Both the position numbers and the translations under genes were made by a program. From Psococerastis gibbosa (lineage: Eukaryota; Arthropoda; Insecta; Psocodea; Psocidae), in the NCBI GenBank assembly GCA_963971405.1, contig OZ020490.1, positions 3,658,001-3,722,000 of the forward strand: a stretch of DNA of 64,000 nucleotides, in the 5' to 3' direction. Positions within the stretch are counted from its first letter, which is position 1; each line of letters opens with the position of its first letter. The notes beneath the pieces were generated by a model, which was given only the letters and a program-made list of their open reading frames with translations, was not told the origin of the DNA and made no database searches. Below, one piece after another: positions 235 through 45,300 of this stretch.

Positions 235-396
235 AGCGGGGATTCCATATACGTCAATCGTCAGTGAAAAATTGAAAAATGACGTTTTAGCAGACATTAA
301 AGACATACTAAAAATTCTGCTACCACGTCAATTTACGTCATTTTGACGTCATTTTTCAATTTTTCATTGACGATTGACGTATATGGAATACCCGCC
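235..396. mobile_element. Foldback MITE, TTA target (family F)
   Basis: Arms AGCGGGGATTCCATATACG and CGTATATGGAATACCCGCC pair over about 60 bp. TTA flanks both sides (232-234, 397-399). The inner part has TTTTAGCAGAC and TCTGCTACCACGTCA, the motif shared by the family. Confidence 0.82.
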
Positions 397-2000
397 TTAT
401 ACTAACGCATAAAGAGCATTATTGTAACCCCCCCTAAATATATACATCAAAAACCTATAACCGCCAACATTAATAGTCAATGACCACAAACGAGTATTTT
501 AACGGAAACCATAGAGGAACTGTAGCAATATAATCGGAAGAAGTGTTAAATTGGTTTATACTAATTAGTGCCGAGAAAGGAACAATCAGACTGTTATAGT
601 ATATGCATATATGTGTAAGTGACAAAAAGAAAGTAGACTTTGTCAGTACTGGAGACGTAGGAATACACCTGAAACGGAAATAATGACTTATTTGTTGTAT
701 TTATGTAAAATTAGGTGGCCTGTTGCGTAAGGATTGATTGAAGGTGAAGTATGGTACCAATATAGGAGAAAACTTGTAGGTGCGGCTTGGTACATACTGT
801 ATATATAGATAACTATAAGATCCTAATAAAGACAACACAACTAGTCGTTGTTACTTTACCATTTTCGTTTGGCCTTTAAATGCAGTCTTTGGAGTGTTGA
901 TGAGGCAATAGACTAATTGACAATTTTGAAAACCTATTTTAAAGCATTATTAAATTTATAACAATGCCTTAACATTATTAAGCAATTATATTCTTTTAAA
1001 ACGCTATTTAGTATGGGGGGGGGGGAGGAGTTTCCCATCTTCCTTAGTTTGCTGATTACGGGTCACCTGGGATTGGAATGTGACGTCATTTGTGATGCCA
1101 CGGGGGCGGCTAGTGGTCCACCACATCATGGCGACGATTTGGAATGTGACGTCATTTTCATGATACCCATGCATGTTAGTGTTTTGCCTTTTGAAATCCA
1201 GATGAAAAATGTAAATACAATAGTTGACTTACCTATAAAAACTATAAAAAAAAATGCCCTAGTACCATGTTGCGAGTTGATGGAATTGGTAACCTGAAAA
1301 AGGTTCGAATTGCCCGAAGAACTTTGCCATTCATTGAAATAAATAAGGTTTTCAGGTTTTCCTTATAAACATTGAAATGTACTTACACTTACAGGTAGAA
1401 TTTTGAAATTTGAATTAATATGTCTACATCAAAGGGAGAAAAAAATTGAAAACTCACCAAAAATATAGGCGAGGATTAATATTTATCAATTTGAATTTCC
1501 CGCGCATTTCGAACTCATTTTTTTTAAAACTATTAAATAAACCCGGTATTATGTTAATCCCAAATCACCATAATAGGACGGCTGGAATACAGTGGGTGTC
1601 ACCAGTGAGTTAGGAATTCCAAAAAGTGACTCAACCCCGAGTTCTCAGGAAACCGTATGACGCAAGCAGGCGGCCAAATTTATTTCTTGAAGCTGTTATT
1701 CTAGGTATTCCAAGCTTAAAAACCAACTGTGACGTCATTTATCGTCATGATCTCATGCTAGTTGCAATTATTAATGACGGATTGCCCAGTGTATGACAAT
1801 TTATGACAATAGTTTTTCTAACATAGGTATGGACCACCTGGGTTTTTTGAGTCATCAGTCACGAGGCAATTGAAAGTCGTCGACAAGGGTTGGGGGTAAT
1901 TGAAGCCGTGCCCCATTACGATAAAAATTCAAGCCTGCTTTTCTGAAAAACATTACCTAGAATTAGAAATGCTTAAAAAACTAAGCTATGTTATGCCTAT
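397..2000. other. AT-rich DNA, no gene recognised
   Basis: No splice-supported coding segment. Several TGACGTCA palindromes (around 1081, 1148, 1732) look like CRE sites but have no gene next to them. A G run at 1013-1025. Confidence 0.5.
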
Positions 2001-2004
2001 ATTT

Positions 2005-2398
2005 GCTTTCCAATTTATGCGTAGTATAAGGAAAGCTTTGGGACGGTCCAAATTTTCGATTCCGAGATTTCAACGGAATTACACGTCTTGAGGTCCCAGG
2101 AACCCAAAAAAGTGGTTTTTACGAAATGTCTGTCTGTCTGTCTGTCGCTCTGTCGCTCTGTCTGTCTGTTCATCGATTTCTGGGCAAACTACTCATTCGA
2201 TTATGATTAAATTCAGCATGTAGGTTAAAAAAAATCATACCACGGAACCATTTTTTTGCTTTCCAATTTATACGTAGTATAAAGAAAGCTTTGTGACGGT
2301 CGAAATTTTCGACTCCGAGATTTCAACGGATTTACACGTTTTGAGGTCCCAGGAACCCAAAAAAGTGATTTCTACGAAATGTCTGTCTGTCTGTCGTT

Positions 2399-2438
<40 letters not shown>

Positions 2439-3480
2439 GCGTCGATTTCCGGGCAAACTACTCGGTCGATTTCCGGGCAAACTACTCGGTCGATCTTGAT
2501 GAAATTCGGCATGTAGGTTCCCAAAAATCATACCTCAGAACTATTTTTTTTGGGCTAACTTAATTTGGGGGGGTTTTATTCTCAAAAAACTCCAAAAAAA
2601 GTCTAAAAAAATTATTTCTCAAAAATGGCAAAACCTGCCAGTATTGCTGTGTGGTAATCTGACCTATCTAGAATTTACTTCACCTCCAGTGACGTTAGAC
2701 GGACAACCCCCCCCCCCCCCCCCCCCGAGATATCGGAAATTTAACCATAGGAAAATTATTTACCATGAAATTACTCATTTTCTCTATCTACTAATTTTGA
2801 TAAATTGGAAAGCATGTTCGAGTAAACTCGGACCGGTTCTTTTATTTTGGGCTAACTCAATTTGGGGAGGGGGGGGGGGTTTATTCTCAAAAAACTCCAA
2901 AAAAATGCTTATAAAATTATTTCTCAAAAACGGCTCCAACGATTTCTTTTCAATTCACATATATTGTAGTCGTTATTAGTGTTGACAAAATGCGAGGGGT
3001 CGCTTGCCCGCTTGCCCCTTGATAGTTTGCTTCTGGGGTAAAAAAATAAAAATAACTAAATTTGAATGAAAAATGACTAAAAAATAATTTTTCTGGGAAA
3101 CCTTCCCATCGTAGATTTCTACCTTCAGGCATGTTTTAGGTGTTAAATTGAGTAACGAAACCGGACAGATTACTTTCCCAAAAAACTATTTGGTTTTGTG
3201 CAAAAAAAATGTTTTTGAAAAAATGATAGATAATTCACGGTCAAATGCATTACGTGCTCTGCCATTATTGCTGTGTGGTAATTTGTTGGTCTGACCTATC
3301 TAGAATTTACCTCACCTCCAGTGACGTCAGGTGGACCCCCCCCCCCCGAGATACTCGAAATTTAACTATAGAAAAAAATTTTACAGTGAAATTATTCATC
3401 TTCTCCATCTACTAATTTTGATAAATTGGAAAGCATGTTCGAGTAAACTCGGACCGGTTCTTTTAATTTAGTTTCGGAGG
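2005..3480 (+). repeat. (CTGT)n-centred dispersed repeat, compound copy
   Basis: Two head-to-tail copies (2005-2255 and 2256-2540) read CCAATTTATACGTAGTATAA, GAGATTTCAACGGATTTACA, CCCAGGAACCCAAAAAAGTG, then a CTGT run and GGGCAAACTACTCGGTCGAT. Downstream blocks also repeat: CTCAAAAAACTCCAAAAAAA at 2578 and 2883, and GAATTTAC(T/C)TCACCTCCAGT at 2671 and 3302. Other copies: 26795-27130, 45335-45420 and 45635-45990, 58905-59060 and 59100-59250 (-), 63740-64000. Short open frames over the CTGT run are repeat artefacts. Confidence 0.85.
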
Positions 3481-3734
3481 ACCACCCCCCTGGGCATGGG
3501 CATGCTACAGACTCAGCAGAGGGTTTGACTGGAATGAATTAATATACAGTGATCTTCTTCTTCTCCTGGCTCTACAGCCCTTGATGAGCAATGGCCCGCT
3601 CGACAGCACTCCGCCACTCATCTCGGTTTTGTACAACGCTCCACCACCTACGTACTCCCGATTCGCGATGGTCAATTTCCAACTCATCCTTCCAAGCATT
3701 TTCGGGGAAATATAAGAGATAGAAAACCATTATC

Positions 3735-3845
3735 AGACAATGAAAAAAAAAATCGCCAGTATCAGGCTCCGAACCAGACACCTCCAGACACTGCACCACA
3801 TAACCAAGTACTTTCACCACTTGACCGCAGTCATACCGCCCACAC
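3735..3845 (-). mobile_element. Possible tRNA-derived SINE
   Basis: On the - strand GACTGCGGTCAAGTGGTGAA and GGTGTCTGGTTCGGAGCC resemble A and B boxes 40-50 bp apart, followed by an oligo-T run (GCGATTTTTTTTTT). Support is limited to these motifs. Confidence 0.4.
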
Positions 3846-4216
3846 ATTAAAAACCAGATGACTAGACCGCAGACCGGTGTATGTGGTCCACTTGCGCTGG
3901 ATGATTGTGTATTATGTAATTACCAGAAGACGAACTGGAACCATATTTAACGGGGACCAGTTATTGAGGTTTCTGCCGTAACACTGCCCTCACGCACGGA
4001 AGGAACTGCCCTACTGCGGTTTATCTGAAAACCGGTGTACATTAATAATGAGAACGCTGTGTATGCCGGTATGGGTCTCTCATTAGCAGTGCCCTATTTG
4101 CGATCTTGTGGTCATGAACATGTCCAGCAGCCGCGATTTAACTGAAAGCCGGTGTACGTTCATATTGAGAACGCTGCGGTGCATTGCCGTTAAGGGCCTC
4201 ATTAACACAGCAATAG

Positions 4217-4728
4217 GGGTCTTCACAGTGCTCGTGTTATCGAGTTATACCTAGTTAAGTGTGTTATATCAAGTTAAGTTAACACACCGATAACCCGATA
4301 ACCAAGCTAACCAGCGTGCTATCTTAAACGCACTTCCAAGTTGGTTAAGTGTGCTATTTAACTTGCGCTGCGATCGATAGCACAGGTTTGACCACTGCCA
4401 TCTTTGTTTTTGTTGATTATTTTGAAACACGCGTTTAAAATTTTGTATTATTTAAATTTATTTGTATAATCTACTATCACAAGCAATTGCCGTAAATACT
4501 TAAAATTATAATAACCAAAATGAACAAAAAATATAAACAAATGTGGCAGTAGAATAGAGTTCTGCCACTTTCTTTAAAACCGTGCCACGAACGTCTGACT
4601 ACTGCCACGTTGTTTTCCCTGTTAAATGTAGCATAATAACTCATTCCCGAGGTACACTCACGATCTTGTGTTAACTTGGATAGCACATCTAACTCAATAA
4701 CTCGATAACACCAACACTGTGAAGACCC
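4217..4728. mobile_element. Foldback MITE, family G
   Basis: Ends GGGTCTTCACAGTG and CACTGTGAAGACCC, continuing GTGTTATCGAGTTAT in both arms. It interrupts a tandem repeat of about 120 bp (3955-4216, resuming at 4750). A one-ended copy lies at 62060-62135 (GATAACTTGATAACACCG). Target duplication is not clear. Confidence 0.75.
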
Positions 4729-4889
4729 TTTATATTTCCGAGCTTGTAACATGCTTATTTGGAAGACGGTGTTCGTTCATATTGAGAACGCTACGCCGAC
4801 AGGTTCACCATTAAGGCCATGTTGTGGCCAGCAACATGCCCAGCAGCCGCGTTTCTACGACAACCGCTGGCGGCAAAGTACCCATTAGT

Positions 4890-5160
4890 TGAATCCAGGC
4901 GCGGTGGTGGTTTTTCCTTTTGTATTGAGTCTCCAAATCGACTTCGATGGGGAGGGTGTAGCGTGTTTGCACTTGTACGAGTCTGTACACGCCATGCGAT
5001 CGGAGACGTGTCGTACCTCAACACGGGTACTAACTTACAGAGGCGACTGAAATGGTCAGTCGGATACATTAATTATTTAATTTGTTGACGAAACGTTTGG
5101 AAGTACGCTTTCAACCATAGCCTATCATCCCGGATTCTACTGCTTCGTCAAATAGAAGAA
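4890..5160 (+). repeat. Dispersed repeat family with GTTGACGAAACGTTTGGAAG
   Basis: Contains GAGTCTGTACACGCCATGCG, ATCGGAGACGTGTCGTACC, CAACACGGGTACTAACTTAC, GGATACATTAAT and GTTGACGAAACGTTTGGAAG. Copies or halves: 11815-11870, 24890-25045 (-), 34150-34380 (+), 40255-40420 (-), 50745-50905 (-), 61510-61580 (+). It is probably a SINE, but no clear polymerase III boxes were recognised. Confidence 0.75.
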
Positions 5161-5547
5161 GATAAAGTTAATAAAGAAGAAGAAGAAGACGACGACGACG
5201 ACGAGGAGGAATTGGCAGAAGGAAAAGAAGAAAATGGCGTCAACGATGACAAAGAGGAAGAAGAAGAAGATGATGGTGATGATGAAAAAGTTGAAGACTA
5301 AAAGGAATTAGAATTAGATGCAGAAGAAGAACGATTAGCATATCGCGTGGTTCACTCCACGGAGGCGTTAACTGAGTAAATCAAAGACAATAACGCAGAG
5401 GACAATCTAGTGGAAGATGGCCCGAAACCGGAAGACTTCCCATATACGACCCGTAGCAGACAGCACACATGCCGAAGTGTGAGGTAACGCCGGAAAGAAG
5501 TGCAAGCTACACCAAAGTCCAATACAAGAAGGTCGCAGAGAAAGTAG
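5155..5547 (+). pseudogene. Degenerate acidic open frame
   Basis: One frame stays coding-like through four stops (TAA 5299, TAA 5377, TAA 5485, TAG 5545). It starts with a very acidic run (EEEEDDDDDEEELAEGKEEN), then ELELDAEEERLAYRVVHSTE, DGPKPEDFPYTTRSRQ and a basic end. No start codon or splice context was seen. It could be a decayed nuclear or transposon protein; I cannot name it. Confidence 0.4.
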
Positions 5548-5599
5548 TCGAGCCTGATAGTTGCGTGGCTGAGCCCAAGGACGATTGCCTCGGCCTTGT

Positions 5600-5760
5600 A
5601 GAGGCGCTATAGGTCGCGTCGGAATGCCAAGCAAAGTGGTTCCGGAGTCCGCACTGCGCTTCGAAGGGTTACGATTGCTTTCAACAGAGGGTGGTTTCTA
5701 CAGGGGGTGGGTGGTCAGTAATTAGTGTGATCTGCCTGAGGATGTACAAGTGTCCCCCCT
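5600..5760 (+). repeat. Dispersed repeat, uninterrupted copy (empty site)
   Basis: The stretch matches 6035-6117 plus 6939-6985 as one piece: TGGTTTCTAC, a G run, GTGGGTGG, then AATTAGTGTGATCTGCCTGAGGATGT. It supplies the natural empty target for the MITE at 6118-6938. Confidence 0.75.
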
Positions 5761-6117
5761 TAGACAACACTGATAGTAACACGAGAACAGCAACATACAG
5801 GACAATTATAAGACTATGGACCAGGGACGAACTCAACAAATTACATTAATGAATTAGGTAGGCTATATTTAGGTATTGAGTTCTACCTTCGCACGCCGCT
5901 GGCATGAGGGGGCACTTCAACTGTATTTGTATTTGGATAAAAATTGTTTTAGGAAAAATACACGGTTATTTATTTATTTACGTCCATGGTGTTATTTATT
6001 GTAGGTTCTAGGTTCAGGGTACTTTGAAATGTCGAGCAAAGTGCTTCCGGAGTCCGCAATACGCTTAGGAGGGTTGCGATTGCTTTCGACAGAGGTGGTT
6101 TCTACTGGGGTGGGTGA

Positions 6118-6938
6118 CACTGGCGGTTTCAAGGGGCCGTGCCCCCCCCCTTCAAGGCCATAGCCGAGGGGGGCTTATTGGGCTGCAGCCCACCCCCCCA
6201 CCCCCCCCCCTCCCTGAAATAAAAAGATGACAATTAAATAAATCTAGTTCAGTAACATGAATATGTCTTCCTCTGTAAATTATAAACTTTACTGCTGTTA
6301 AAATAATAAAACCTCACTATTTCGGACCTATTTTTTCAACAACAACAAAATCCCCGGGGGAGACCCCCGGTCCCCCTGTTTGGAGCAATATGAATTAGCA
6401 TTCCTTTTTGAGCTATCCTGCTGTAAAACCCCTCTGTTTTGCAATTACATTTTCAAATTTTTCCCCCGGGGGAGACCCCCGGGCCCCCTCTTTGGGTTCA
6501 ATGCAATATTATTTTTATCAATACGCATTATTTTGTAAGCTATGTAAAATCCATACTTTACTGCTGTTAAAGTGCGTAAAACCCCCAATACTTTGCACTT
6601 ATATTTTCAAATTTTTCCCCCGGGGGAGACCCCAGGCTCCCCTCTTCGGGTTACATGCAATATTATTTCAATATTATCCAAAACCGTCGTAGTGATAGCA
6701 TTACGATTTAGTCCGCACATCCGCAAAATATTATAAGCCTGTGTTCGCGCCGAAGCTAAATCCTCCAATAAATTGACGTTTGATGTGCCTATGCTATCAT
6801 AGTATATACCAGTAACACCATAACATCTAAAGAATACACTAGATACAATTGAATTCTCAAGTTATAAATTTACACTAGATAGGATCACAGTATTGTCAAT
6901 GCCCCCCCCCCCTTTTGAAAATTCTAAAACCGCCACTG
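6118..6938. mobile_element. Non-autonomous hAT MITE
   Basis: Ends CACTGGCGGTTT and AAACCGCCACTG; flanks GTGGGTGA and GTGGGTGG are an 8-bp target duplication with one change. Inside are three related blocks of about 120-140 bp, each carrying the self-complementary string CCCCCGGGGGAGACCCCCGG or a close variant, plus C runs at both edges. It is inserted in a repeat whose uninterrupted relative lies at about 5635-5755. Confidence 0.88.
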
Positions 6939-7259
6939 GTGGGTGGTCATTAATAAGTGTGGTCCGCCTGAGGATGTCTATGGTGTTATGTAGGTGTTCG
7001 GTTCAGGTCAGCCGGCCGCCATACCAAGTTGAATCCAGCGAACCAGAGCAGGTTCAAAACTGCAGATAAATTGGTCGTGTGCACAGTGCCGGTAGGGAAA
7101 CATGGTAGGACTTGTCCTGGTCACCTCCGAACTAATCGTGTGACTTCACTGTGTTTCCCAAGTGGTTCGGAATCCACTATAATCAGGAGGTCCACTGGAG
7201 TCCGATGGGCCCACACCATGGCCTGGGACTGTGTCCAACCATACTACTACTACTACTAG

Positions 7260-8080
7260 GTTCAAGTCACTTTACATATGATTTTTCCTCGCTTTTATCC
7301 CTGTAGGTGAGGCCAGCGGGTAGGTTCTCTTCCACCCCTTGCGATTCTGTGTTTCGGCTACAGTTGCGCCTACAATTCAGAAGTCTTTCGCTTCTACTGT
7401 TAGCCTGAACTGTCCTCTTCTCCCCTCAGCTTCGATATTTTTTACCCGCTTTTTTATGCCATTTGGCTGCCTTCTTTCCTTATCAACTATGCTAGCTGAG
7501 TAGCTGTATTCATATTTTCAGTTCTAATTGTGTCGTCTACCAGCTAGTGTGAAGCCCAGAGCCTAGGATCAGGTCACTTTGGAATTCTAAAAGGAATATG
7601 CTTGGGATTGCTTTTTAACAAGGATAGATTATCTCTCAGCACTTAAATTCTTTGTCTTTCTCATTAGAACCGCTCCCTATCCGGCTCGTAATGAACACCC
7701 TGTAACAACCGTGCCGGTACACAATAATTTGGTAATGAGCCTATGGTACCTGTTGTGTCATATTATGACTGAACCTGCGGGCTGTAATTAGTACATCCTA
7801 TTGCAGTCAAGGCTATATTACCTTTAAATAGACTACCGCGACAGAGACCCCCATCAACAGACCCGGGTAATATGGGTATGCGGATCTATACAGACTCAAT
7901 AAATAGCTTAAAGTCCGTTTATGTATCGAGTGGTTATATCAAGCTATGCCCGTGTTGCATGCACGTGGAGAACCTGTCTGCTGTGTTAATAGTAAATAGA
8001 GGCCTCTTAGTCATCGAACAATTAGGGTCCCCTTCTCCTGACAATGGGCTCCACCCAAATTGTTCGTTGACTATGAGGTC
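7260..8080. other. Unassigned stretch
   Basis: Short ORFs only, with no family match, between a LINE 3' end (7190-7258) and the MITE at 8087. Confidence 0.4.
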
Positions 8081-8086
8081 CATGCT

Positions 8087-8329
8087 CAGTGGCGGCGCTA
8101 GAAATTTTAAGACGGGGGGGGGGGGCCATGAGGGGGCATGACTTCTACCTGGGGGGGGGGCAATGAAAACACAAAACATTTTTCATTAGGAGTAGGTATA
8201 TACACCGTTCAATAATTCTGCAATTTAACGCCATGTAAAATATCTCAAAAGTGGGGGGGGCCCGGAGGGGCCGGAGAAACGGTTGGTGGGGGCCAGGCCC
8301 CCTCGGGCACCCCCGTAGCGCCGCCACTG
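8087..8329. mobile_element. Non-autonomous hAT MITE
   Basis: Ends CAGTGGCGGCGCTA and TAGCGCCGCCACTG are perfect inverted repeats. Flanks TCCATGCT and TCCATGCC are an 8-bp duplication with one change. The interior has long G runs. Confidence 0.88.
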
Positions 8330-8617
8330 TCCATGCCAGTAATGGAAATTAGCACAGCAGGCAATGTAAAGTTCAACCAACCCTTTGTTTAATACAGACC
8401 AAAAGGCATTACTCAGAACCTCAGCTACTTTGAAGACAAGTAGTTAAATTATATTGTAGTAATATTGAAGAAGTTCCAGCCTGACACCAAAGAGTTCAAG
8501 AGGTTCTAGAGATAAAAAAAAAAGGAAAATGCGGTTGCTTGGAATGTCACTGACAACATGGTACCCATTCTGGAAGAGTTTGACCAGTTTTTTGATAAAT
8601 TTTTCTTATCTTTCCAG

Positions 8618-8694
8618 GTACTCGGCAGTAATTGCCTTCATCTTCTGTGCCATACTGGACTTGAAATGCATAAGTGCAGCCCGCAACCTCACAG
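8618..8694 (+). CDS. Candidate signal-peptide exon of the peroxidase
   Basis: A good acceptor (ttatctttccag) and donor (acag|gtacgc) bound an open stretch encoding YSAVIAFIFCAILDLKCISA then ARNLT. That is a hydrophobic core followed by a plausible signal-peptidase site. It ends in phase 1, exactly what the exon at 16884 needs (codon g|aa gives E). The start codon would be in an unseen upstream exon, or at ATG 8529 or 8544 if the frame is read unspliced. The link across an 8-kb repeat-filled intron is inferred from phase and character only. Confidence 0.45.
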
Positions 8695-10074: not shown

Positions 10075-10116
10075 AAAATATTCCACCGCTGATCGGAACT
10101 TTTTATCATATAATAA

Positions 10117-10350: not shown

Positions 10351-10390
10351 GCAGATACTAGTCTGATGGGAACCTTAGCTTTGTTCGTAA

Positions 10391-10787
10391 GGCGCGGTTT
10401 CCACCGACCTGCTAGTGCTAAATACAAATACGGTGACGTGGTAACAGACATTCAAGACTTAGGCGGGGTTTTCCACCGACCTCGCATTGCAGAATGCAAA
10501 TGACATTGACGGTAATTTGAATTTTTCTTTTTATAGAATTATTATTAAAATGTTTGTACTTAACATATCCCATGAAGCCATTTTTTAATTTTAGTTTGTT
10601 TGTTTGTGATTTGACTCTATAATCATTGATCAATTTCAACTATGGCATAGAGTAAAACAAACATTTCCGTCAATGTCATTTGCATTCTGCAATGCGAGGT
10701 CGATGGAAACCCCGCCTACGTCTTGAATGTCTGTTACCACGTCACCGTATTTGTATTTAGCACTAGCAGGTCGGTAGAAACCGCGCC
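10391..10787. mobile_element. Foldback MITE, TAA target, carrying a nested copy (family F)
   Basis: Outer arms GGCGCGGTTTCCACCGACC and GGTCGGTAGAAACCGCGCC pair through CTAGTGCTAAATACAAATAC and GTGGTAACAGACATTCAAGAC. TAA flanks both sides (10388-10390, 10788-10790). Its centre is interrupted by a second element at 10462-10716. Confidence 0.88.
10462..10716. mobile_element. Inner foldback MITE with shared loop (family F)
   Basis: Tips GGCGGGGTTTTCCACCGACC and GGTCGATGGAAACCCCGCC, arms CTCGCATTGCAGAATGCAAA. The loop contains, on the - strand, ATGGCTTCATGGGATATG and a TTGATCAATGATTATAGAG segment that recurs at 21520-21763 and 44252-44683. It sits exactly in the centre of the outer palindrome. 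Confidence 0.88.
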
Positions 10788-11029: not shown

Positions 11030-11835
11030 TTTAGAATGGAGCTTAGTGTTATTCAAAATTGTCTTTTTTACATTTTTAACCCCCCCCCCCTCCCCCAGAG
11101 TAAGTTAATATTAAGACTCATATCTGTATTTGGTTAAGTCGTGTTTTCACCTATTTCATTGAATCAATGGTAAGCTTGTCTCAGCTTGTCCATTATCGCT
11201 TGTAGCCAGTGTAGGTTGACATCGATAACGTATACCAGTTCGCCAATTGTTTCCGAAACAATACAAATAGTGTCCGAAATCCATGGAGTCGTTGGCATTG
11301 ACCAAGGCACCTATGGGCCACTGTGAATAGGCATAGGTCTATAAAAAGTAATTCAAAAAATTAAGTTAATATTAAACTGTATGTAGGCCCATTGTAAGCT
11401 AAACACATAACTAATTTGTTATTAATTATTCATGGTATTAATTGTCTTGTTTACATTTTTAACCCCCCCCCCCTCCGAGTAAGTTAATATTAAGACTCAT
11501 ATCTGTATTTGGTTAAGTCGTGTTTTCACCTATTTCATTGCATCAATGGTAAGCTTGTCTCAGCTTGTCCATTATCGCTTGTAGCCAGTGTAGGTTGACA
11601 TCGATAACGTATATCAGTTCGCCAATGGTTTCCGAAACAATACAAATAGTGTCCGAAATCCATGGAGTCGTTGGCATTAAACAAGGGGCCTATATGGGCC
11701 ACTATTAAGTAGGCTTAGTTCCATAAATAGTTATTCAAAAAATTTAGTTAATATTGAACTGTATATTAGTAGGCCCACTGTAAGCTAAACACATAACTAA
11801 TTAGTTATTAATTTGGAAGTTCACTTTCAATTCGA
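11030..11835 (+). repeat. Tandem duplication of about 400 bp
   Basis: 11055-11420 and 11446-11800 match in order: TTTACATTTTTAACCCCCCC, GAGTAAGTTAATATTAAGAC, TCATATCTGTATTTGGTTAA, the - strand repeat described at 10117, and CTAAACACATAACTAATT. It is a local duplication holding a repeat copy in each unit. Confidence 0.8.
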
Positions 11836-16670: not shown

Positions 16671-16810
16671 GGCGCTTATTCCACCAACGTCAATAGTGAT
16701 AGTAAATGTAGTATTGACGTGGTAGCAGTCATTTTTAGACTGTCTTTAATGTCTGCTACCACGTCAATACTACATTTACTATCACTATTGACGTTGGTGG
16801 AATATGCGCC
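16671..16810. mobile_element. Foldback MITE, TTA target (family F)
   Basis: Arms GGCGCTTATTCCACCAACGT and ACGTTGGTGGAATATGCGCC, TTA on both sides. The centre has GACGTGGTAGCAGTC and GTCTGCTACCACGTC. It lies 70 bp before a peroxidase exon (16884). Confidence 0.88.
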
Positions 16811-17102: not shown

Positions 17103-20100
17103 GTAAGTGGTCACTTATGACATGCAGCGTTTGTGCTTAGAGTAAGTCCGGAATCAACAGGAATGTGTCCTCCGTCGAAATACCGGGTTCCCACCGGAAT
17201 GTGCAACAATGTACGGCAACCCATGTGGGGATTGGCCGGAATGCCTTTCCTTAGATTGTTGCCTCCACACTAATCTGACGGTAAAGCAGTCGAACATTTG
17301 TGATTAGCGTAAGTACGAAATCACCCGAAATATTATGTCTCCCGTCGAAATCCCGGGATCCTACCGGAACCGGAATGCGTAGCAATATTCTTAACCCATG
17401 TGGGGATCGGCCTTTCCTTTGATTGTTGTCTTCACGCTGTTCTGACTGTAAATAGTCACTAACCATATGACATACAACCTTTTCAACTTAGAGTAAGGTG
17501 GAATCACCCGGAATGTCCTCCGTCGAAATAACGGGATCCTACCGGAATGTGCAACAATATGCGTGAACCCATGGGTGGATTGGCCGGAATAAATTTCCTT
17601 AGAATGTTGCCTACACACTATGTGTATGTTATTATAACTACTTATTACTTACACAATGTTTGCACTTAGCCTGAGTCCGAAATACCCGGTATATAGGCTA
17701 CCTGACAAATAGCTGCAGGGATATAATAGCATTTTTATTATAACACACGGCTATGGACTATAGTATAAAAGAGATAAGAACATTTGCTTCCAGAATCCCA
17801 GAATCCAAGAATATGTTTTTAATTTCAAATGCATATCGCCTATAATAGCCTACGTAAATCAAAATGGTCATATGTGACTTAACACCTTCTTCCATCTCCT
17901 ACCACAGCCATAACTATACAAGTATATGGGCTACCATTCTAATTAATTCATCTATTTACCTATTCACTGTCCATGTCAAACCTCATTCACAAACTATACA
18001 GGTACAATGGGAACAGATGTAAGAATACAATTGACGAACTACAAATTTGTTTATGGCCTGTTTACTACAATGTGGCGCTACCTAACAATGCCAGGTACAC
18101 ACAGGACCTATTGTCCCGTCCCGAATTGCATCATGACCTTCGTGCCGGCTTCTTAGGCAATCGGGGCATCGTAATGAATCGGTCAAAGGCGCCACAGTGC
18201 GTAAGAGATGCCATCTTGGGCGGAGACAAGCAGGGGTAGGAGTTCTACAGTATAGAAGAGATGGGACATTCACTCAAGCCATGGATATATTTCGAATTTT
18301 TGGTGCCACCTGCCATGAACAAATCTTCGACAAATCAGAGCTTGCCTCATTTAACGCTTACAAGCATCAATAATCCTGCTGATGTTGTTGTTGATCCTGT
18401 TGTTGTTTCTGTTGTTGTTGTTGTAGTTGTCGATGTTTCTGTTTTTGTGGTTGTTGCTGTTATTGTTGTTGCTGTTATTTCTGATGTTGGAGTTGTTGTT
18501 GTTGTTGTTGTTGTTGTTTCTGTTGTTGCTGCTGTTATTGTAATTTTTATTGTTGATATTTAGGTTGATTGTTGTTGTTGCTGTTGTTGCTGCTGTTATT
18601 GTAATTTTTATTGTTGATATTTAGGTTGATTGTTGTTGTTGCTGTTATTTCTGATGTTAGAATTGTTGTTGCTGCTATTGTTGTGGCTGCTGCTGTTGTT
18701 GTTGTTGTTGTTGTTGTTATTTTGGTTGATTGTTGTTGTTGTTGTCAACCAACTAGACTTAACCACCACGTCTGCCACGCCCTCTTCAACCACGACACTT
18801 CCACGCAACACTATTATAACACATTTCGGTTGCAAGATGTGTGCTAAGTGGTCAAAAAAGGCGTGTCAATTGGCCAAAGAGGAATTTTTTAACCGTGCGG
18901 GTGTTTCGATTATTTGACGACTACACAATTCCGCAATTAATCGGTCAGAGGCGTCAAATTACTTAAGAGAGGTCGTTTTGTGTGGAGACAGACAGGGGTT
19001 GAGTTCTAAATAGCAGAAATGGGACATTCGCATCCGCCATGGATATATTTCGAATTGCTTCTACCATCTACCGCGTCTTCTTCAACCACGACACTTCCAA
19101 GCGACATTAAATCCCGTCGTGGCACAAAGACGTGTTCAGGTTGGTCAAAAGAAGACATGTCAATTTACACTTACCGTAGGGCGGCGTTGTCAACTAAATG
19201 GAGCGTGTCGAGTCCTGGTCACATCCGAATTAATCATGTGACTTTACTATATTCCCCAAGTGGTTAGGAATCCACTATAATCAGGAGGTCCACCCTGTCA
19301 GTCAACTCCTCTTCTCCCTCTGATGAAGGAGTCTGCACCTAGGGTGATCAAGTTAACATACAGACTCACTCCCCCCGCCACGCTGACAGGGTTGCAGTAG
19401 AATTGCTGAATTGAAGAATTTCTGAAACGGAATTGGTGAAAAACTTGAGGCACCCTAAGAGAGAAGGGTGGGCGGGGGAGTCTGCTTCTTACCTTGAGGC
19501 ACCCTAAGGGCAGACTCCTTTACGTCAGGGAGTAGACTGACAGGGTGGACCTCCTGATTATAACAGATTCCGAACCATTTGGGGAACATTGTAAAGTCAC
19601 ACGATTAAATCGGAGGTGACCAGGACTCGACACGCACTTAGACTGACTGGTATAGTCTCAGCGCGTCATCATGACCCACCATATTCCCCTGCCAACGCTA
19701 TGCACACTACCAAATTTGCTGCTGTTTTAAATAGGTTCTGTTCTGGTGGATTTAACATGACAGTGGTACCTATTGCACTCACAATACTACCTACATTACG
19801 AAAGCCTTGAAAGGTGCAATGAAGTACCTAATATGCGTGAAACGCCATCCATATGAAATCACCATGGCAACACTCTGGATAGCCCAGAAACCCTATTCGC
19901 TAAAAAGCCATAGGCTAAACTGAGTGATTCAGCACATATAGCCTACATCCACCGTTACGTAACTTTCTTCATTGAGCCAAGTAGTATGTTTCGCACGCAA
20001 TACTAAATAACAAAGGTATTACTTTGTATACACTTACTTCCCGATCATATTTCTGTTGGGAGTTCCAATAGAAGTTTATTAGCGTATATTACTAGTACCT

Positions 20101-23100
20101 CCATGTTCATGTTATGGTGTAATACAATGTATATGAACACCATACATACTATGGCTACAAGTATGTAGGTCAATTTTGTTAGATTTTGAATTTTTCCCAT
20201 TAGTGGTGCTTAACGGCAGGGGGGGGCTTATACTATGGGCTTATGACGTAAATCAAATTAAATTTCCAAGAGGCCCACTATTTTCTACCCGTGTGAGTTT
20301 TCCGGCTTCTTTTCAGCCTATATAGGCCTATTGACGAGAAAATATTTTTTTTCTTTTTTATTCTTTCTACTGCTTTATTTTTTTTAAGGGTTCACATCTT
20401 TAATATTGTTGTTTTGTTTTGTCATGTTTTGTTGTTCATGTCAGGACATTTTCAGTAGTGGAACAGACTCCGACTTTCACCCGAAAGGATGCTTGTTCAG
20501 TCCCACACTTGCTACATTTCCTGGCCATGCTTCGGGAGTCATGTAAAGCAGGCGATCCCGGGCTTTTATAGTTGAGTATATGAGAGGGTTTTGTAGCCCT
20601 AACTCCGCCAGGTTGGCTTAGCCATAGAACAAAAAGTCCATATTTATTTTTTTATTTATTTATTTTGTTCGCAAAAATTACTCCATGGCTCATTCTGTGG
20701 TCGCTGTAGCAGCCTGAGACGGATCCAGCCCATTTTTGGGGGGAGGGTAGTTGTGTGTCAAAATAAGAAAATCATCTGTAAGATCGATTAAATCATAACA
20801 TAATAAATTAACTTACTAAATTTTTTTTGGGGGGGAGGGCACTACCCCCCCTATCCTCACCCTCCCCCCCCCCAGTATCCGCCCTTGGTTGCAGCAGAAG
20901 GATAACCTAAAACCTATCCTGGGCCTATTACGACAATGACAACGGAAATTCATAATTATTAGCGGTGCTAGAGAGTTTTAAAACCATCTGCGCTGCGACA
21001 CACTCTCACCCATAAGGGAAGCACTATGTACAAGCCAAAATTTAAAGTCATTGCATTATAGTGGGGTTTGCCATTGGTGTTTGGCCACCGGCTTAGCCCA
21101 GTTGGTAAAGCACCGGTCTAATTATGAACTGTAAGGCCAAGGTTCGAGATGCGAAATAAAAGAATTTTTTCCCGTCAGAATTTGAGTCGTCTAGTATCAA
21201 AGTTGCCAATGTAATCAGTGACCAAGTTTTCAGAAATCATATAAATCATATACTGTACTTAGGCGGGGTTTCCACCGACCTCTCATTGCAGAATGCACAT
21301 ACGTTGACGTTTTTTTTTTTTTTTAAATTGGTTTTAGAGCGACTGCAAGTTAGGGCTTGCTTATACGCCCACCGAGCCAATTGGTGTTTCGATTGAATAT
21401 ATTAATGGGTTACACTGCCCTTGTATTAAGACCTTTAGTTCCTCTTCATTTGCTAAGCTTCCTCTTCTTCTTCTTCTTCGATTGGATACGTTGACGTGGT
21501 AGCAGATATCATTAATAAAGGCGGGGTTTCCACCGACCTCTCATTGCAGAATGCAAATGACATTGACGGAAATTTTTGTTCTATGCCATAGTTAAAATTG
21601 ATCAATGATCATAGAGTAAAATCACAAACAAACCAAAATTAAAAAATGGCGTCATGGGATATGTTAAGTGCAAACATTTTAATAGATTTCTATAAAAAGA
21701 AAAATTCAAATTTCCCTCAATGTCATTTGCATTCTGCAATGAGAGGTCGGTGGAAACCCTGCCTAAACAAAACTGACAGTACAGCAACTTTTCTATTTAC
21801 AGGTTTTGTGGTTTCTAAAAAATTGGTCACTGATTAACTTACATTGGCGACTTGAAGACTCATTTGGTCCTCCCAAAGTAATGGGTTCCAAAATTTATAA
21901 TCAACTTGAACGGAACTTGATTCGTAGGAGGCTCCAGAGAGTAGAAAGGTAGAAAGAGTACCAAGAACTGTGGCCAATGTTACTGCGTTCTTCTTCTGCT
22001 TTAAATGGCTCTTCTATCAAAGATTGGCAACCATCATGGCAATTTGTACCTTCGAGACTATTACTCGGAAAAGGGAAGTCATGCTTTTGCCAAACTACTG
22101 CTTCATGTTTTTCAACCAGGATATTATTTTTCTGCCAGGAGCCCTCAGTCCCTCTTTCTTCCCTTGGATTATTGCATGAAGAACACCGATACTTTTCGTC
22201 TCTCATCACATGGCCGAAGTATGTTAGTTTTCGTTTCGTCAGCAGCAACTTGGCTTCTGGCTCGTCTTAGGACCTCAGCATTAAGGACACGATCTCTCCA
22301 GGATATGCGCAGTATTCGTCTGCATTTCCATATTTCGAATGCACTGATTCTGTTCTCCATAGCCTGTGTCAGAGTCCATCCCTCCATAACATATACACTA
22401 ATTAGGAACCCAGAAAATTTTACCATTCTCAATTGAAGATTCAACCGCAGATTCCGACACCAAAGTACTTTCTGAATTTTGGATAACATTTCGAGCTTGT
22501 TCAACGCGGCTGCGTTAGTGACAAAACACTGTACAGAAAAATGTGGAGGAATATTTCTTCTAATCTCTTAGTCCTTAATTACCTAAGTTCTCAATGACAG
22601 TTCAGCGATCGGTATTTTCTGTGAAATTTGTATTAGTTTAAAAAAAGTTAATTTATTTATTGTTTGTATCTCGTAACACCATCATTCAACAGTATGAAGA
22701 CAGTCTACGAAATATTGCAGTGTCGAGGTGATAAAACTAATTCATAAGAAATGTCAAACGGTCCGTGGTTTCCTTGAAGAAAAACCAAGGTTAGAGGAAG
22801 TAGGCTGCAGAGCAGTGCAACAAACCTTGGTAGAAACATTCGCGAATATTGGGAAACAAAGAAAGACTTTTGGGCCAAAACGCAGTGGGTAAAACGTCTG
22901 ATCGCTAATTCTAATACTTCTTTAACTACCTGTCTTATTTAACGCTTCCAAACATTATTAAATCAGGTTGTTCTTATTGTTGTAATTGCTGTTGCTGTTG
23001 CTGTTGTTTTTGATTCTGCTGTAGTAGAATTTGTTGTTGTTGTTGTTGTTGATGTTTCTGTTGCTTCTGTTCTGTGCCAAAACTCAGTGGGTAAAACGCC

Positions 23101-39300: not shown

Positions 39301-42300
39301 CATTCCGCTGACGCATTAATCCGCTAAGGTATCTTTTATTTATTACAGTAGCTTGTTTTGTTGGCTACAAAATTCACACAGGTGCTGTAAATTCTGTAGA
39401 TAATAAAGACGTACTAATTATGAAAAGAGATGATTTACTCTCCTCACGAAACCCAGGCTGAACGTACCAACGGTTCTACACAACAATTACCATACCAGCG
39501 CCTCCGCGCGGCCAACTCTCTCATTCATTATGTGTTCGTTTCCCGCCAAATTAAAAAAAAAAATACTACAAACGCTATGTCAATGTTCGCACAGAGCGAC
39601 CAGTAAAAAAAAAAAAAAAATTGAACAGTCTGTTTCAATTAATAATTTAGTGATTAAATAATATATTCAGCAATATTGACAAGTTACTAAGGCGGGTATT
39701 CCACTGGTCAATTTTCCCGTCAAATGTGATTAAAAAGATGTTGGTAGCAGACCTACCATTATTATAACTTAATTGATAATAGATAAGTTAAGTATCTACA
39801 TATTAGTCCCTTTAAATTAAGTTATAATATGGTAGCAGACTCTTTTTAATCACATTTGACGGGAAAATTGACCAGTGGAATACCCGCCTAAAACCCCGCG
39901 TGGCCAACTCTCTCACTCACCATGTGTCCATTTCCCGCCAAATTCATAATAACTACAACTTCTATGTCAATGCCACTAGTAATAACGAATAAAATTGAAC
40001 AGTCTCTTTCATAAAAGCAAAGTGTCATTAGCTAAAAAGTTTTAACGAGTTTTCCGTAATTATTCAGTACAAATTTATAACTAACCTTTAGTAGTTACCG
40101 TGTTCAGGTGCACATGTACCGTATAGTAAATACCAGCCAGTCAGCATTATAAAGCTCGAGAACTGGCGAAGTTGATAACGTGTGCCAGATAGCCAATTAA
40201 TTTAAAATAAAATTCCTATCATTATCATGCAGTGTAGGTACCGCACAGTCTTTTTTTATGTAAAAGGTTAACCACGTGCAAACAATATTTAATGAATGTA
40301 TCTGATTGACCTCTTCACTCTTCAGTCGCCTCACTAGATTAGTAGCCGTGTTGAGTTACGACACGTCTCCGATCGCAATCCTCGCACAAGTACAGGCACG
40401 CTGCCACCTTGCCATCCATTTTGTAAATTCTATTCGAAATATTTTATCTCTGTTAACTATAAAGCACAGTAATAAGCATATACAGTAAATGGGCTCCTAA
40501 AGAGACTTCCATCAAACTAGATAGCAAACAACGAACGTTACATTGTCGCAGTAAATTTAATTAATTACGGTACACTACGGAATTCCTTTTAGAGCCATTG
40601 TACTGTACTGTAATTGCGTTGAACTATAATCAGTTCTTTGTATTACCCCCTTCCACCCCCCCCCCCCATTCCCATTCAAAATAATTAATTAAATTGGATG
40701 GCATCCGCTGGAAAATGCCTTTGACGTATTTGCTGACTAGCTGTTATCATTGTATTGGATTCGGTCTGTCATAAATACGAGATTCACTTAACTATTGTTA
40801 TCTGGTTTTCATAAAGCTTCATGAACAATAATTCTATTTCCTTGGGGTGTTTAGGAACAGAACATTTGAGGGGGGGGGGGATAGTGTTGGGACAAAAAAA
40901 ATCGAATAAACTTATGTAGTATTAAGTTAATTGCAACGTAATAAATTAAATTACAACAGACTTTTTGTTTTGTTTTTTTTTTGGGGGGGGAGGTAGCCAC
41001 CCCTGTAGCTGCGCCGTTGTTTAGGCATAGGCGTAGCTTGTGGAAAACCAGTGCTGTTGGTATCTCTGACTTTCAGCAACTCGCCAAAGTGACCAATCTG
41101 ACTGATCACTGTACTACGTCATGTCAGGGCGTCATTTTTGCAGCATTTTGCACTAAGGCGGTTATTCAGTCTGTCAATAATCCGTTATTTGAGGAGCTTG
41201 GTTACAAACGTGGCCAACTCCATTTTTTTCACAAAATGGGGTTTTGATCCGACCTTGCAGAAAATGTTAATGTCCACCTGCACGTTGTAAAATAAAGTGA
41301 CAAAAGCAGCCAGATTGCGCACAAAAGTCTGGGGTTAGCTATATAGACTTAATGCAATTTTCAACAGAAAATCCGCTCTCTTGAGAAATTCTACAACTTG
41401 GAGTTGGCCATGTTTGTAAACAGCCTCCTCATTTGTGCTATAAATGGAAAATAGATAGTAAAACCGTGTACCCTATTTCTAGACAAAAATATATGGACAT
41501 AAAATTACAGGGTGTGTCCCCTCAAGCCGAAGCGTGGGAGGGTGGCACAACAAACCTAATATAACTAAATATTAGGTTATAGAAGGTTATTTGCTTACAA
41601 AATATTTAAAGCTATCGCTAACTTAGATTGGGGTAAATTCAGTAGGGGCCCTCAAACCCCTTGAATAAAAAGGTGGGGAAACATAAAATGGGGAAAATAG
41701 GGAAAATGTGCTTAGGCTACGGCTTCTTCTTCTGCTTCCTCTTCGTCATCCTTCGAAGGGATGGGGGGGGGTCTTGAACTCGACCCGGTTGGACGCTAAC
41801 GTCTTGAGCTCGGCCATTGTTTTTCCTCTTGCTCCGGCAAGTTGTTCAATTCTTGTGCTAGTAGTAGTAGTAGTAGTAGTGTTCGTCGGATTAATAACGA
41901 CTTAGGCCTCATTTGGGTCTATAGAGCGACCCCGACTTGACTGTCCTATGCCAGCACATAGGACAGTGGACCTCCTGATTATAGTGGACCAGGACAAGTC
42001 CTACCATGTTTCCCTACCGGCACTGTGCACACGACCAAGTAATCTGCAGCTTTGAACCTGCTCTGGTCCGCTGGATTCAACTTGGTAACGCGGCCGGTTA
42101 ATTCTTGTGCTAAGTGTTATATATGCATTCTTTAGGTATAGGAATGAAGTTACATGGCATCAAGTTCCCAATTATAAGTTTATTATCTCAAAATCCAAAA
42201 CTCAGATACATTCAACCCACGCCATCTTCCTACAGTGACGCAACCACACATCCGCGCTAACTCATCAGCCAATCAGAGCGCACCTCATAGAACTATCTCA

Positions 42301-45300
42301 TCATCATACATAATAGTTAGGTTACAACTTTATTAAATTTCTGTTTCAGGCATGAAACCGAAAATCCGGTAACCAAATTCACAGAGGCGCAACTATTGGA
42401 GATAAAGAAAATAACTTTATCAAAAGTTCTATGTGAGAATATGGACCATAGGGGGGATATCCAAAGATCAGCATTAGATCAACCTAGCCCCTTTTTGTAA
42501 GTACCTAGCCCCTTTTTGTAAGTACCTAGGCTATCTGACAATGTTATTATGTAGTTTATATAAGCAAACACAGGCCTATTAGATCAGGGACGGATCCAGC
42601 CCATATTTTGGGAGGTAGTCCAGGATAGATAATTTTGTTTAAGACATCAAATTATAGTAGAATGAAACCCATTGGAAATGGAAGATAATAAGTATTTTTG
42701 TAAAAATTAAAAATAAAAAACCAAAACCTTTTTTTTTTTTTTTAAATTGGGGTACAGGTGTTACCTGTGTGCACTTAAGCCTATTGTGCCCCCTACAACA
42801 AAGAATCTACATATCTACATCACTTCCTCGAGGCCTATTTCCCTCAGGAGAGCCAGGACCTTGAGGGGATTTAGAAGTGGTAGGTCTTTTACATGTAATT
42901 GCAAGTTTCCCAAGCATGCTGCTCTTCTACGTGCGATTGCATCGCAGTGAAGGAGGATATGCTCGGGGTCCTCCGCTCCTTCGTTACAGAATCTGCATGC
43001 TCTAGACTCTCTGACACCTATGTTGGTCAGATGTCCATTCAAGTTGCAATGCCCAGAGAGGAATCCTGTGATCACACGCAGATGTCTCCTGTTCATATTA
43101 ATGCATACTTGGGCTCTTTTGCGCTGGTGGCTTCCCAGGAGCATTTTGGCTTGCCGAAGGCCCGGCAATGAGGTCCAGTATTCAGCCACTTTCAGGTTCT
43201 CCTTGCCTTTAACAAATCTGCGGGCGAGGGTTTCCCCAACACCGCAAAAAGGGTCGGAACCAAAACCTTGGTGTTTCTCATGAAATTTGAAGTTATGTGA
43301 AATAAGTGTAAACACTAAAGTTGTAGATATTCCTATTACCTACCTTTTTGCTATTTGATGTTTTTCCATTGGACTTGTAGTTTTGCCGGAAATGAAGATG
43401 TACCGTATTTCGCCCTTAAAAACCCACCCCTACTTCCCGAACTCAGATCGCCCGTAATTTATTTTTCCATCAATTTCTGTCATATTACCTTCCATTTCCA
43501 ATGGGGTTCATTCTACTCTAAGTTTATGTCTTATTTCACCATTTTTCAAGGGATCTACCCTGGACTAAGGAGGGGTAGTTGTGGAACAAAATAGAATAAA
43601 TTCATGTATTAGTAGTATCAAAAGTAAAGTAAAAAGTAAATTCGTGTCGGGGTGGTACTACCCGTGGTACAGGAGTTTTCAGGTTGCATCAACAGCCTCC
43701 TGTTTAACCTATCGACAGTCAGGGAAGACTGCCGGGACCGCCGGCTTTACATGCCCTCCGAAGCATGGTAGTCAGAAGATAAATAATTGTACCACTAGAA
43801 AATTTTGGCATTCGGGTGGGACTCGAACCAGTCACCCTCTGGATGATAGTCCGAGTCGTTACCTCTACGCCATTCTGACTACTATTACGTTAGTAGTATC
43901 GATTAAGTTATAACTCAATAAATTAATATACAACAGAATTTTGTCTTTTTTGGAGGGCAGCTACCCTCTGTCCCGATCCGTCCATGTATTAGGGTATTAG
44001 GTTAGTTTACAATGTTTCTTTAATATAAAAATGTTAAGTCGAGTATTTTAACGACGAAAAATAGCCGAAGTGGAAAGTAAGTAAGTGGCAAGAGCATGAA
44101 AAATAAAAGAAGAAAAGAAAATGAAAAATTGCATTCAAATATGAAAGTGAAGTGGCGAATGAAATAGTGCTAGACTGTTAGAGGCTATGGAAGAATAGAG
44201 ACAGCTTCTACGGTACCCCATATAATAAATAGAAGAGCGGGCATTTGCTAAGGCAGCTATTCCACTTGTCAATTTTTCTTCAATTTTAATAATGTCATTG
44301 ATGGAAAATCATCAATGTTGCATTTGTATTTTTACACCTCATTGCACTTGTCTTCAATAATTGACCATTTTCGTTTTCAATTTTTTCCCAATTTTGTAAG
44401 TTTGCCCACCGTCTTTCTTTTAATTTTATAACCTACATACAAGAAATGTTATGATTTAAATTATGAAATAATTCGTTTGTTCTCAAGAAATTAATTACAA
44501 TTAATTATCATCTCCAGACGACGCCATTGTTTAATTTTAGTTTGTCACTGTTTGCAAAACGTGATTTTCTCTATATGATTATTGATCAAGTTTAACATGC
44601 GGAAGTTGAAATAGACAATGACGTAGAGTAAAGAAAAACTCTAATCGATTGTTGAAGAAAAATTGACAAGTGGAATAGCCGGCTTAAACACGAAAATGTG
44701 GTGCACACCATCATTGAAGGCACAGTGGAAGGAACCGATAGAAGAGGGCGGCCGAAGAAGGAATTCATGGATCAACTGAAGGAGGAAGCAGGAGCTCAAA
44801 CGTACCAAGAGCTGAAGAGGACCGAGAGAGCTGGGGATGATATGCAGGGAGTTGCTGCCAACCAATCGTTAAGATTTTGACCTCAGATGAAGAAGCAGTG
44901 TCCCAATTCCATATCAATAACTCCATATCCCAAAACTGTAGTTACGTCTTGTTTTCATGTCACAATAGAATGGGTTCGGACTGACATTTTATTTAATAAT
45001 ATATCGTATACTAATACCGCCGAACCCCTGTATGAGATAAGCCGCAGAAAAAGTAAGTATAATAAATTTATTGTGCCTTGTTTCAGAAATCCTCGGGTTC
45101 CTTGTCATTCAATCCCAGACATAGATCTGGGCGCGTGGCGCGAAGGGGCCGGCTGCAACGTGAATGGCAGGCAACTTCCTATTGGAGGAACGGCTGTGCC
45201 AACGCCCTGCACTAGCTGTGTCTGCACGGCCCAAGGGGTAAGAACAAAATGGCTGCTCCCAGGTCAAGACAGGCCATAGCCAGTGGGAGTCCGGGGGGTC

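What the first reader, a model, noticed from the sequence alone, without database searches (positions are those of the whole stretch)
235..44683. Foldback family with constant tips, constant inner motif and partly constant loop but different arms
Six loci (235, 10391/10462, 16671, 21262/21520, 39691, 44252) share outer tips GGCGGGNWTTCCAC and TTA/TAA flanks. Most share an inner GTGGTAGCAGAC motif, and three share a loop of about 100 bp. Yet the 30-60 bp of arm between tip and motif differs from copy to copy while still pairing with its own partner (for example ATATACGTCAATCG, AACGTCAATAGTG, GGTCAATTTTCCCG, CTGCTAGTGCTAAATAC). Arms that diverge but stay complementary need a mechanism such as hairpin-templated repair or gene conversion, or successive nested insertions that rebuild arms. 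I know of no standard MITE description that fits this.
Basis: partly seen in the sequence, partly recalled or inferred. Interest (0 to 1): 0.78.

Follow-up and report, generated by a model that had tools for sequence, protein, structure and literature searches.

The report
Mosaic hairpin transposons sharing one tip
The hairpin sequences are small non-coding jumping genes that share one end-tip; they fall into large inherited subfamilies in this animal-like genome, and the subfamilies look assembled by swapping ready-made arms and centres, not by constant rewriting of each copy.

Summary
Searched directly, E1, E3, E5 and E6 are copies of genome-wide MITE subfamilies with inherited arms (listed copies 97-100% for E1 and E3, 86-91% for E5 and E6). 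E2 is an 88% relative of a 384-bp composite family (98-100%). E4 was not searched. In 30 E3 copies, 54 arm changes are unpaired and one pair is matched (40 to 0 without one polymorphic site), so copies are not continuously re-paired.

Subfamilies are nevertheless mosaics: the same arms carry different centres (E3 arms on a 140-bp and a 469-bp family), and one centre carries several arm sets, with clear switches at TTGACG. Template switching during repair, followed by amplification of each new palindrome, explains this best. The 3-bp TWA duplication and GG tip are PIF/Harbinger-like. No autonomous partner was found, but only 31 transposase loci were read.

Unexpected: target duplications are often imperfect (29 of 53 exact), most often at the middle base.

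Verdict: new variant of a known kind.

The parts
235..396 (+). E1: 162-bp palindromic MITE, TSD TTA/TTA; left arm lacks about 21 bp present in the right arm
   Evidence: subfamily of 40 listed copies at 97-100%, the window copy included
10391..10787 (.). E2: composite MITE, TSD TAA/TAA; outer 72-bp arms enclose an inner element
   Evidence: 88% identical to the L023 composite, whose family has 40 listed copies at 98-100%. E2 itself was not searched genome-wide
10462..10716 (.). E2 inner element (long interior with ATGGCTTC remnant on the - strand); its flanks are near-inverted (TTA/TAC), not a direct duplication
   Evidence: its own genome search did not complete
16671..16810 (.). E3: 140-bp palindromic MITE, TSD TTA/TTA
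   Evidence: 40 listed copies at 97-100%, the window copy included
21262..21519 (+). E4 outer left half-unit (tip, arm, GTGGTAGCAGAT, ATCATTAATAAA), interrupted at 21310-21485 by a poly-T-headed insert flanked by ATACGTTGACG
   Evidence: sequence; tip and motif hits
21520..21763 (+). E4 inner element, long interior with ATGGCGTCATGGGATATG on the + strand
   Evidence: not searched genome-wide
39691..39888 (.). E5: 198-bp MITE, TSD TAA/TAA, AT-rich loop shared with elements that have other arms
   Evidence: 39 further listed copies at 86-90%
44252..44683 (-). E6: 432-bp element with short terminal repeats and a long interior (ATGGCGTC on the - strand), probably an internal-deletion product; flanks TAA/TTA
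   Evidence: 39 further listed copies at 87-91%

Best explanation
This is a large group of non-autonomous, PIF/Harbinger-like MITEs that share the end-tip (presumably what the transposase recognises: inferred). The group consists of many subfamilies, each apparently amplified from one founder (supported for those searched). Founders are chimeras of three modules: tip, arm pair and centre. Arm sets of short forms match arm sets of longer elements that look like internal-deletion products (identical for E3/L014; similar, 0.82-0.85, for L029/L033 and L012b/E4i). Most likely an element was broken or excised and then repaired; copying began in both native arms and switched template at short shared words (TTGACG, perhaps TGGTAGCAGAC) into the centre of another family member. 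That gives a symmetric element with one family's arms and another's centre, which then multiplied (inferred). Nesting adds a second route: an inner element sits in the loop of a short form, and the composite moves as a unit (shown by its copies at many sites).
For: Inherited subfamilies, 40 listed places per DNA query with the query's own place included: E3, E1 (27, plus one neighbouring place at 92%), E6 (36), composite (52), E5 (66), L014-long 93-96% (80), L025 96-98% (81), L033-long 96-97% (90). Unpaired changes in E3: 54 to 1, or 40 to 0 without site 6. Modules: E3 and L014-long arms identical over positions 15-48, E4i/L012b 0.85, L029/L033-long 0.82, against mean 0.54 between 17 representative elements and 0.44 for shuffled arms. 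The GTAGCAGA motif occurs in 10 of the 12 arm clusters, the long ATGGCKTC interior with four arm sets, the E5 loop with at least three.
Against: No autonomous element with these tips was found: 31 transposase loci of four lineages were read, none with the tips as its own ends. The direction of the swaps is unknown. The switch at TTGACG is clear in E3/L014 and L012b/E4i, but L029 and L033 arms drift apart before that word. The only candidate intermediate with unlike arms is L054. Elements other than the queries come from the flanks of 90 loci chosen by similarity to E1, E3 or a transposase, so the sample is not random. In E1 one site, and in single copies a few more, do differ in both arms together.
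Confidence: 0.66

Rival explanations
1. Continuous arm homogenisation: hairpin-templated repair or gene conversion keeps the two arms of each copy complementary while they drift from other copies.
For: Between subfamilies the arms differ on both sides together. In 24 distinct E1-type copies, 12 carry T at site 31 on the left, and 11 of these have the matching change on the right (1 has another change); L038 also has a matched change at site 7, and the E1-like copy in L029 differs at three more matched sites. Site 31 is a CpG in both arms, so two separate transitions are possible. E2 has 1 left-right difference but 9-15 differences from its relatives.
Against: 54 unpaired arm changes against 1 matched pair among 30 E3 copies, 40 to 0 without site 6. 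Within 9 composites the left-right difference (mean 3.1; 2.9 with E2) is close to the between-copy difference (3.4 left, 4.3 right). Matched differences between subfamilies need only one event per founder.
Confidence: 0.1
2. Several autonomous lineages with related interiors each gave rise to their own MITEs by internal deletion, with no exchange between families; common tips and interiors are common descent only.
For: Long forms (E6, E4 inner, L014, L033) look like deletion derivatives that share a leader and an ATGGCKTC start. Internal deletion is the usual proposed origin of MITEs.
Against: Short forms with different arms share one motif and centre that were not seen in the long forms with the same arms (L014, L033, E4 inner); without exchange the same arm changes would have to arise twice.
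Confidence: 0.2
3. Arms are rebuilt by successive nested insertions.
For: E2, L013, L022, L023, L035, L038, L050 and L056 contain an element inside the loop of another, and E4 has the same layout on its left side. L012:1770-1909 shows what an unfilled loop of this kind looks like.
Against: Explains only composites; E1, E3, E5 and E6 show no nested structure. In the symmetric composites the inner flanks are mirror images or nearly so (CAAGACTTA / TAAGTCTTG), not the direct duplication a plain insertion leaves.
Confidence: 0.05

Closest known systems
PIF/Harbinger (Tourist-like) MITEs; PHIS superfamily (PMC4482050; PMC2213677; passages seen)
   Same: 3-bp TWA target duplication, terminal repeat beginning with G, high copy number, no long coding frame in the elements, interior of some that looks like a remnant of an autonomous element.
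   Different: Terminal repeats far longer than the 14-25 bp that PMC2213677 quotes for autonomous elements; modular exchange of arm pairs; target duplications often unequal, most often at the middle base; transposase source not identified.
P-MITEs of Anopheles gambiae (PMC1562414, passages seen)
   Same: Several subfamilies; the authors propose internal deletion with repair from an ectopic template, and report one MITE whose two ends match different master subfamilies.
   Different: Different superfamily (P). Here both arms are exchanged together and one centre recurs with several arm sets.
Foldback elements and Tetris/DAIBAM of Drosophila virilis (PMC4079207, passages seen)
   Same: Modular non-autonomous elements with long inverted repeats; two elements share only the terminal portions; autonomous source not found.
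   Different: Tetris carries 220-bp repeats in its terminal repeats, and that paper says most foldbacks seem to belong to Mutator; here the arms lack such arrays and the duplication is 3 bp.
Pack-TIRs by gap filling and template switching in animals (PMC8277862, passages seen)
   Same: Template switching at microhomology inside TIR elements, in some cases followed by transposition of the chimera.
   Different: There the filler is non-TE sequence, gene sequence in some; here it would be another member of the same MITE group.

Membership tests
PIF/Harbinger-like (Tourist-type) MITE | 3-bp target-site duplication of TWA type | tested here: met
   Exact 3-bp duplication in 29 of 53 E1/E3 copies, most of them TTA or TAA; none reaches 4 bp in the 30 E3 and 22 E1 copies of those calls. 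Caveat: 21 of 53 differ at one base (10 at the middle base, 9 of these A/T swaps) and 3 at more.
PIF/Harbinger-like (Tourist-type) MITE | Terminal inverted repeat starting with G | tested here: met
   GGCG or GGTG at both ends in most elements listed; a few have one changed end base.
PIF/Harbinger-like (Tourist-type) MITE | Shares terminal repeats with an element encoding a DDE_Tnp_4 (Harbinger) transposase | tested here: inconclusive
   PF13359 transposases are abundant (150 places scored and listed of 220 candidates), but none of the 31 loci read (L061-L091, four lineages, flanks 1.5-2.2 kb) has these tips as its own ends. L061-L080 carry an E1 copy inside. L084-L090 have one 2-mismatch hit with no partner and no TWA flank.
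PIF/Harbinger-like (Tourist-type) MITE | Short, non-coding, high copy number | tested here: met
   65 to about 500 bp (the search window ended at 700 and 520 bp); 14,735 exact tip matches for one tip variant alone.
PIF/Harbinger-like (Tourist-type) MITE | Mobilised by a Harbinger transposase plus Myb-like protein | not testable with these tools
   Needs an excision assay.
Foldback (FB) elements | Arms made of tandem sub-repeats (recalled; Tetris passages agree) | tested here: not met
   Tandem Repeats Finder at score 30 shows in the six window elements only short arrays: 11 bp x 2.9 and two of 8 bp x 2 in E1, a 15-base T run and a (CTT)7 inside the E4 insert, 10 bp x 1.9 in the E6 interior.
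Foldback (FB) elements | Longer, Mutator-type target duplication of about 8-9 bp (recalled) | tested here: not met
   No duplication longer than 3 bp in 30 E3 and 22 E1 copies.

The most novel reading that the evidence does not exclude
A MITE centre can outlive the transposase lineage that made it by exchanging both arms at once: repair copies the arms of whichever element family is active and joins them at built-in switch words (TTGACG, TGGTAGCAGAC) to an old centre. Alongside this, insertion does not copy the target faithfully: the middle base of the TWA duplication is taken from the donor flank at one end and from the target at the other, so duplications are unequal.
Probability: 0.22. Interest if true: 0.65.

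Novelty: new variant of a known kind. Interest (0 to 1): 0.45.

Why it matters
How MITE families are born, and how they keep pace with diverging transposases, is an old open question. A genome with thousands of copies that share tips, with subfamilies of different divergence and recurring arm and centre modules, lets the order of swaps be read directly and the switch points tested. The unequal target duplications, if confirmed genome-wide, would bear on how PIF/Harbinger-type ends are cut and joined.

Tried and rejected
Chance matching of tips: rejected. Per-copy arm homogenisation: contradicted for E3; one search printed 56 unpaired positions, and the recount puts 2 of these in the loop and 14 at site 6. 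Inverted copying of flanks as the cause of TTA/TAA mismatches: not supported; inverted similarity reaches the fourth base in 9 of 19 such cases including 4 inner or artefact hits, in 5 of the other 15 (my count from the listing). Plain mutation as the cause: unlikely, 8 middle-base mismatches in 30 E3 copies against about 0.8 expected from element divergence, P about 2e-6, or 0.004 if the rate is tripled; but these copies were the best matches to the query, which lowers the expectation. The idea that the symmetric composites prove inverted copying of one outer half was weakened: a simple form with a nearly symmetric centre exists (L013:2205-2342). Within composites, left-right and between-copy differences are nearly equal, which is against homogenisation there. 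Autonomous partner: not seen in L061-L090 or in the 384-aa lineage (L091). Rows dropped: one search dropped 8 of 30 E1 copies whose anchors were mutated; one search gave 87 distinct candidates (45 direct, 19 inverted, 23 other), which include sub-hits such as L013:929, L038:1745 and overlapping window readings; one search gave 88 candidates in 14 clusters, 2 of them artefacts; L056 was left out of the composite means, having been in those. The first tip pattern did not complete and was replaced by a wider one; the E2 inner search did not complete and not repeated.
Full report
WHAT IS THERE. The window is animal-like DNA: a haem peroxidase exon, a hAT transposase frame with DUF4371, and a weak zf-RVT match below its cut-off. 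It is C15:3658001-3722000 of a 409-Mb assembly. The species was not identified. The reported tips and motif are far above chance; five of the six paired arms are among the nine longest inverted repeats of the window and the sixth ranks fifteenth. I call the elements E1 (235-396), E2 (10391-10787, with an inner element 10462-10716), E3 (16671-16810), E4 (21262-21763: a left half-unit plus an inner element 21520-21763), E5 (39691-39888) and E6 (44252-44683). E1, E2 outer, E3 and E5 have exact TTA or TAA duplications; the other boundary readings do not.

INHERITED SUBFAMILIES. The genome search scores only 40 candidates per DNA query, so counts are lower bounds, and the listed copies are the closest ones. 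E3: 40 places at 97-100%, the window copy included, 1092 first-look candidates. E1: 40 at 97-100%, plus one neighbouring place at 92%, 1240 candidates. E6: 39 besides the window copy at 87-91%, 2011 candidates. E5: 39 besides the window copy at 86-90%, 1001 candidates. A 384-bp composite built like E2 (copy in L023): 40 at 98-100%, 1508 candidates; the window E2 is 88% identical to it. E2 itself, E2 inner and E4 were not searched. The exact tip pattern with a TWA flank, one tip variant only, occurs 14,735 times; the reversed control occurs once. Some E1 copies share flanks because they sit inside larger repeats.

NO CONTINUOUS RE-PAIRING. I oriented 30 E3 copies by their loop and compared them with their consensus: 58 changes, 2 of them in the loop, 54 on one arm only, and 1 matched pair. 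16 of the arm changes, the matched pair among them, are at site 6, which is polymorphic; without it the count is 40 unpaired and none matched. In 24 distinct E1-type copies, 12 carry T at site 31 on the left and 11 of these have the matching change on the right; L038 also has a matched change at site 7, and the E1-like element in L029 differs at three further matched sites; the remaining changes are unpaired. In 9 composites the left-right difference averages 3.1 of 68 bases and the between-copy difference 3.4 to 4.3, almost the same. Arms therefore mutate mostly independently once a subfamily exists; matched differences lie mainly between subfamilies, that is, they go back to founders.

MOSAIC FOUNDERS. 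Scanning the fetched loci gave further elements with the same tips. At the threshold used, 88 candidates fall into 12 arm clusters after two artefacts are dropped. Left and right arms (positions 15-48) agree at 0.89-1.00 in 16 of 17 representative elements; the exception is E6 (0.71), whose repeat is short. Different elements agree at 0.54 on average and shuffled arms at 0.44. The same arms are found with different centres. E3 arms (identical over the 34 bases compared) also flank a 469-bp element in L014, itself a family with 39 further listed copies at 93-96%. The E1-like arms of L029 (0.82) resemble those of a 444-bp element in L033, a family with 39 further copies at 96-97%. The arms of L012:1770-1909 (0.85) resemble those of the E4 inner element. 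Conversely, one centre occurs with several arms: the GTGGTAGCAGAC motif followed by an ACATTAAAGAC-like loop in E1, E3, E2 outer, L009, L012:1770 and L013:2205, and the motif with another continuation in L025; the long interior with an ATGGCKTC start in E2 inner, E4 inner, E6, L014 and L033; the E5 loop in E5, L025 and L012:1178-1431, with partial copies in L047 and L010. L025 is again a family (39 further copies at 96-98%). The switch falls at TTGACG in E3/L014 and L012b/E4i, and next to TGGTAGCAGAC for the E5 loop; L029 and L033 drift apart earlier. Two lineages that never exchange DNA are unlikely to gain the same arm changes, so exchange of modules is the simplest account. Its molecular route is inference: repair of a broken or excised element that starts in both native arms and jumps to another element's centre. 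Template switching at microhomology in TIR elements is described (PMC8277862, passages), and repair from an ectopic template is proposed for P-MITEs (PMC1562414, passages).

NESTING. E2, L013, L022, L023 (two), L035 (two), L038, L050, L054 and L056 contain an E4-inner-like element at the centre of an outer short form, or a damaged version of that layout. L012:1770-1909 shows an unfilled centre of similar sequence. L056 has unequal centre flanks, as a plain insertion would leave. The flanks are exact mirror images (CAAGACTTA / TAAGTCTTG) in L013, L022, the first L023 copy and L050, and nearly so in L035, L038, the second L023 copy and E2. This suggests that one outer half was copied from the other after nesting; a symmetric starting centre is an alternative. 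Outer arms of two types occur together in L054.

TARGET DUPLICATIONS. Of 53 E1/E3 copies, 29 have an exact 3-bp duplication (13 of 30 E3, 16 of 23 E1), 21 differ at one base and 3 at more. Of the 21, 10 differ at the middle base (9 are A/T swaps), 6 at the first and 5 at the third. One search, with another choice of E1 copies, gave 18 of 22 exact. The middle-base rate in E3 exceeds what element divergence predicts, though the copies were chosen for similarity, which lowers that prediction. Inverted similarity does not clearly extend outwards. I keep this as an unexplained side result; carry-over of a donor base is one possibility.

TRANSPOSASE. PF13359 (DDE_Tnp_4) finds 150 listed places of 220 candidates. 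In one lineage, L061-L080 carry an E1 copy 540 bp (in L061) downstream of the transposase frame as a nested insert; L081 of the same lineage lacks it. None of the 31 loci read shows these tips as the ends of the transposase element, but flanks were 1.5-2.2 kb and only four lineages were read. Family assignment therefore rests on the 3-bp TWA duplication and the tip, which match the PIF/Harbinger description (PMC4482050 and PMC2213677, passages).

LITERATURE. Searches of the open library listed no paper whose title or shown abstract start describes symmetric exchange of MITE arm pairs. I saw passages of five papers and none in full, so this is weak evidence of novelty.

VERDICT. A real, very abundant and unusually modular MITE group. 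The striking 'arms diverge but stay complementary' is mainly a property of subfamily founders, not an ongoing process in each copy. New variant of a known kind.

Noticed in passing
L001-L060 flanks; window 44252-44683: Target duplications are often unequal, most often an A/T swap of the middle base of TWA (9 of 53 E1/E3 copies; also E6); inverted flank copying does not explain it.
   Followed up: partly
L061-L080, e.g. L061:2574-2735: An E1 copy is carried 540 bp after the transposase frame in L061 and at the matching place in the other 19 loci of a Harbinger-type lineage; L081 lacks it and its sequence diverges exactly at the insertion point.
   Followed up: partly
window 21310-21485: Poly-T-headed insert with flanking duplication ATACGTTGACG inside the E4 outer half-unit; looks like a retroposed SINE in reverse orientation.
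   Followed up: no
window 52530-52927: Long palindrome (161-nt arms, 94%) with a second palindrome in its loop, just beyond the end of the hAT DUF4371 frame at 52997-55195.
   Followed up: no
window 19203-19635: Another foldback with 107-nt arms (90%); no hit to the shared tip there.
   Followed up: no
L082:2485-2686, L084:2629-2822, L091:1132-1366: Other Harbinger-type loci carry inverted repeats with roughly 100- to 200-bp spans near the transposase gene; those of L082 and L084 are partly alike.
   Followed up: no
G000 C1, about 2.96-3.81 Mb: Ten consecutive tip matches, nine of one type, all on the minus strand, spaced about 57-130 kb: may be a large segmental array.
   Followed up: no
window 62239-63641: 404-bp unit repeated 3.5 times at 96%; a satellite-like array.
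   Followed up: no
window 11057-11813: 379-bp unit in two tandem copies, 92% matches.
   Followed up: no
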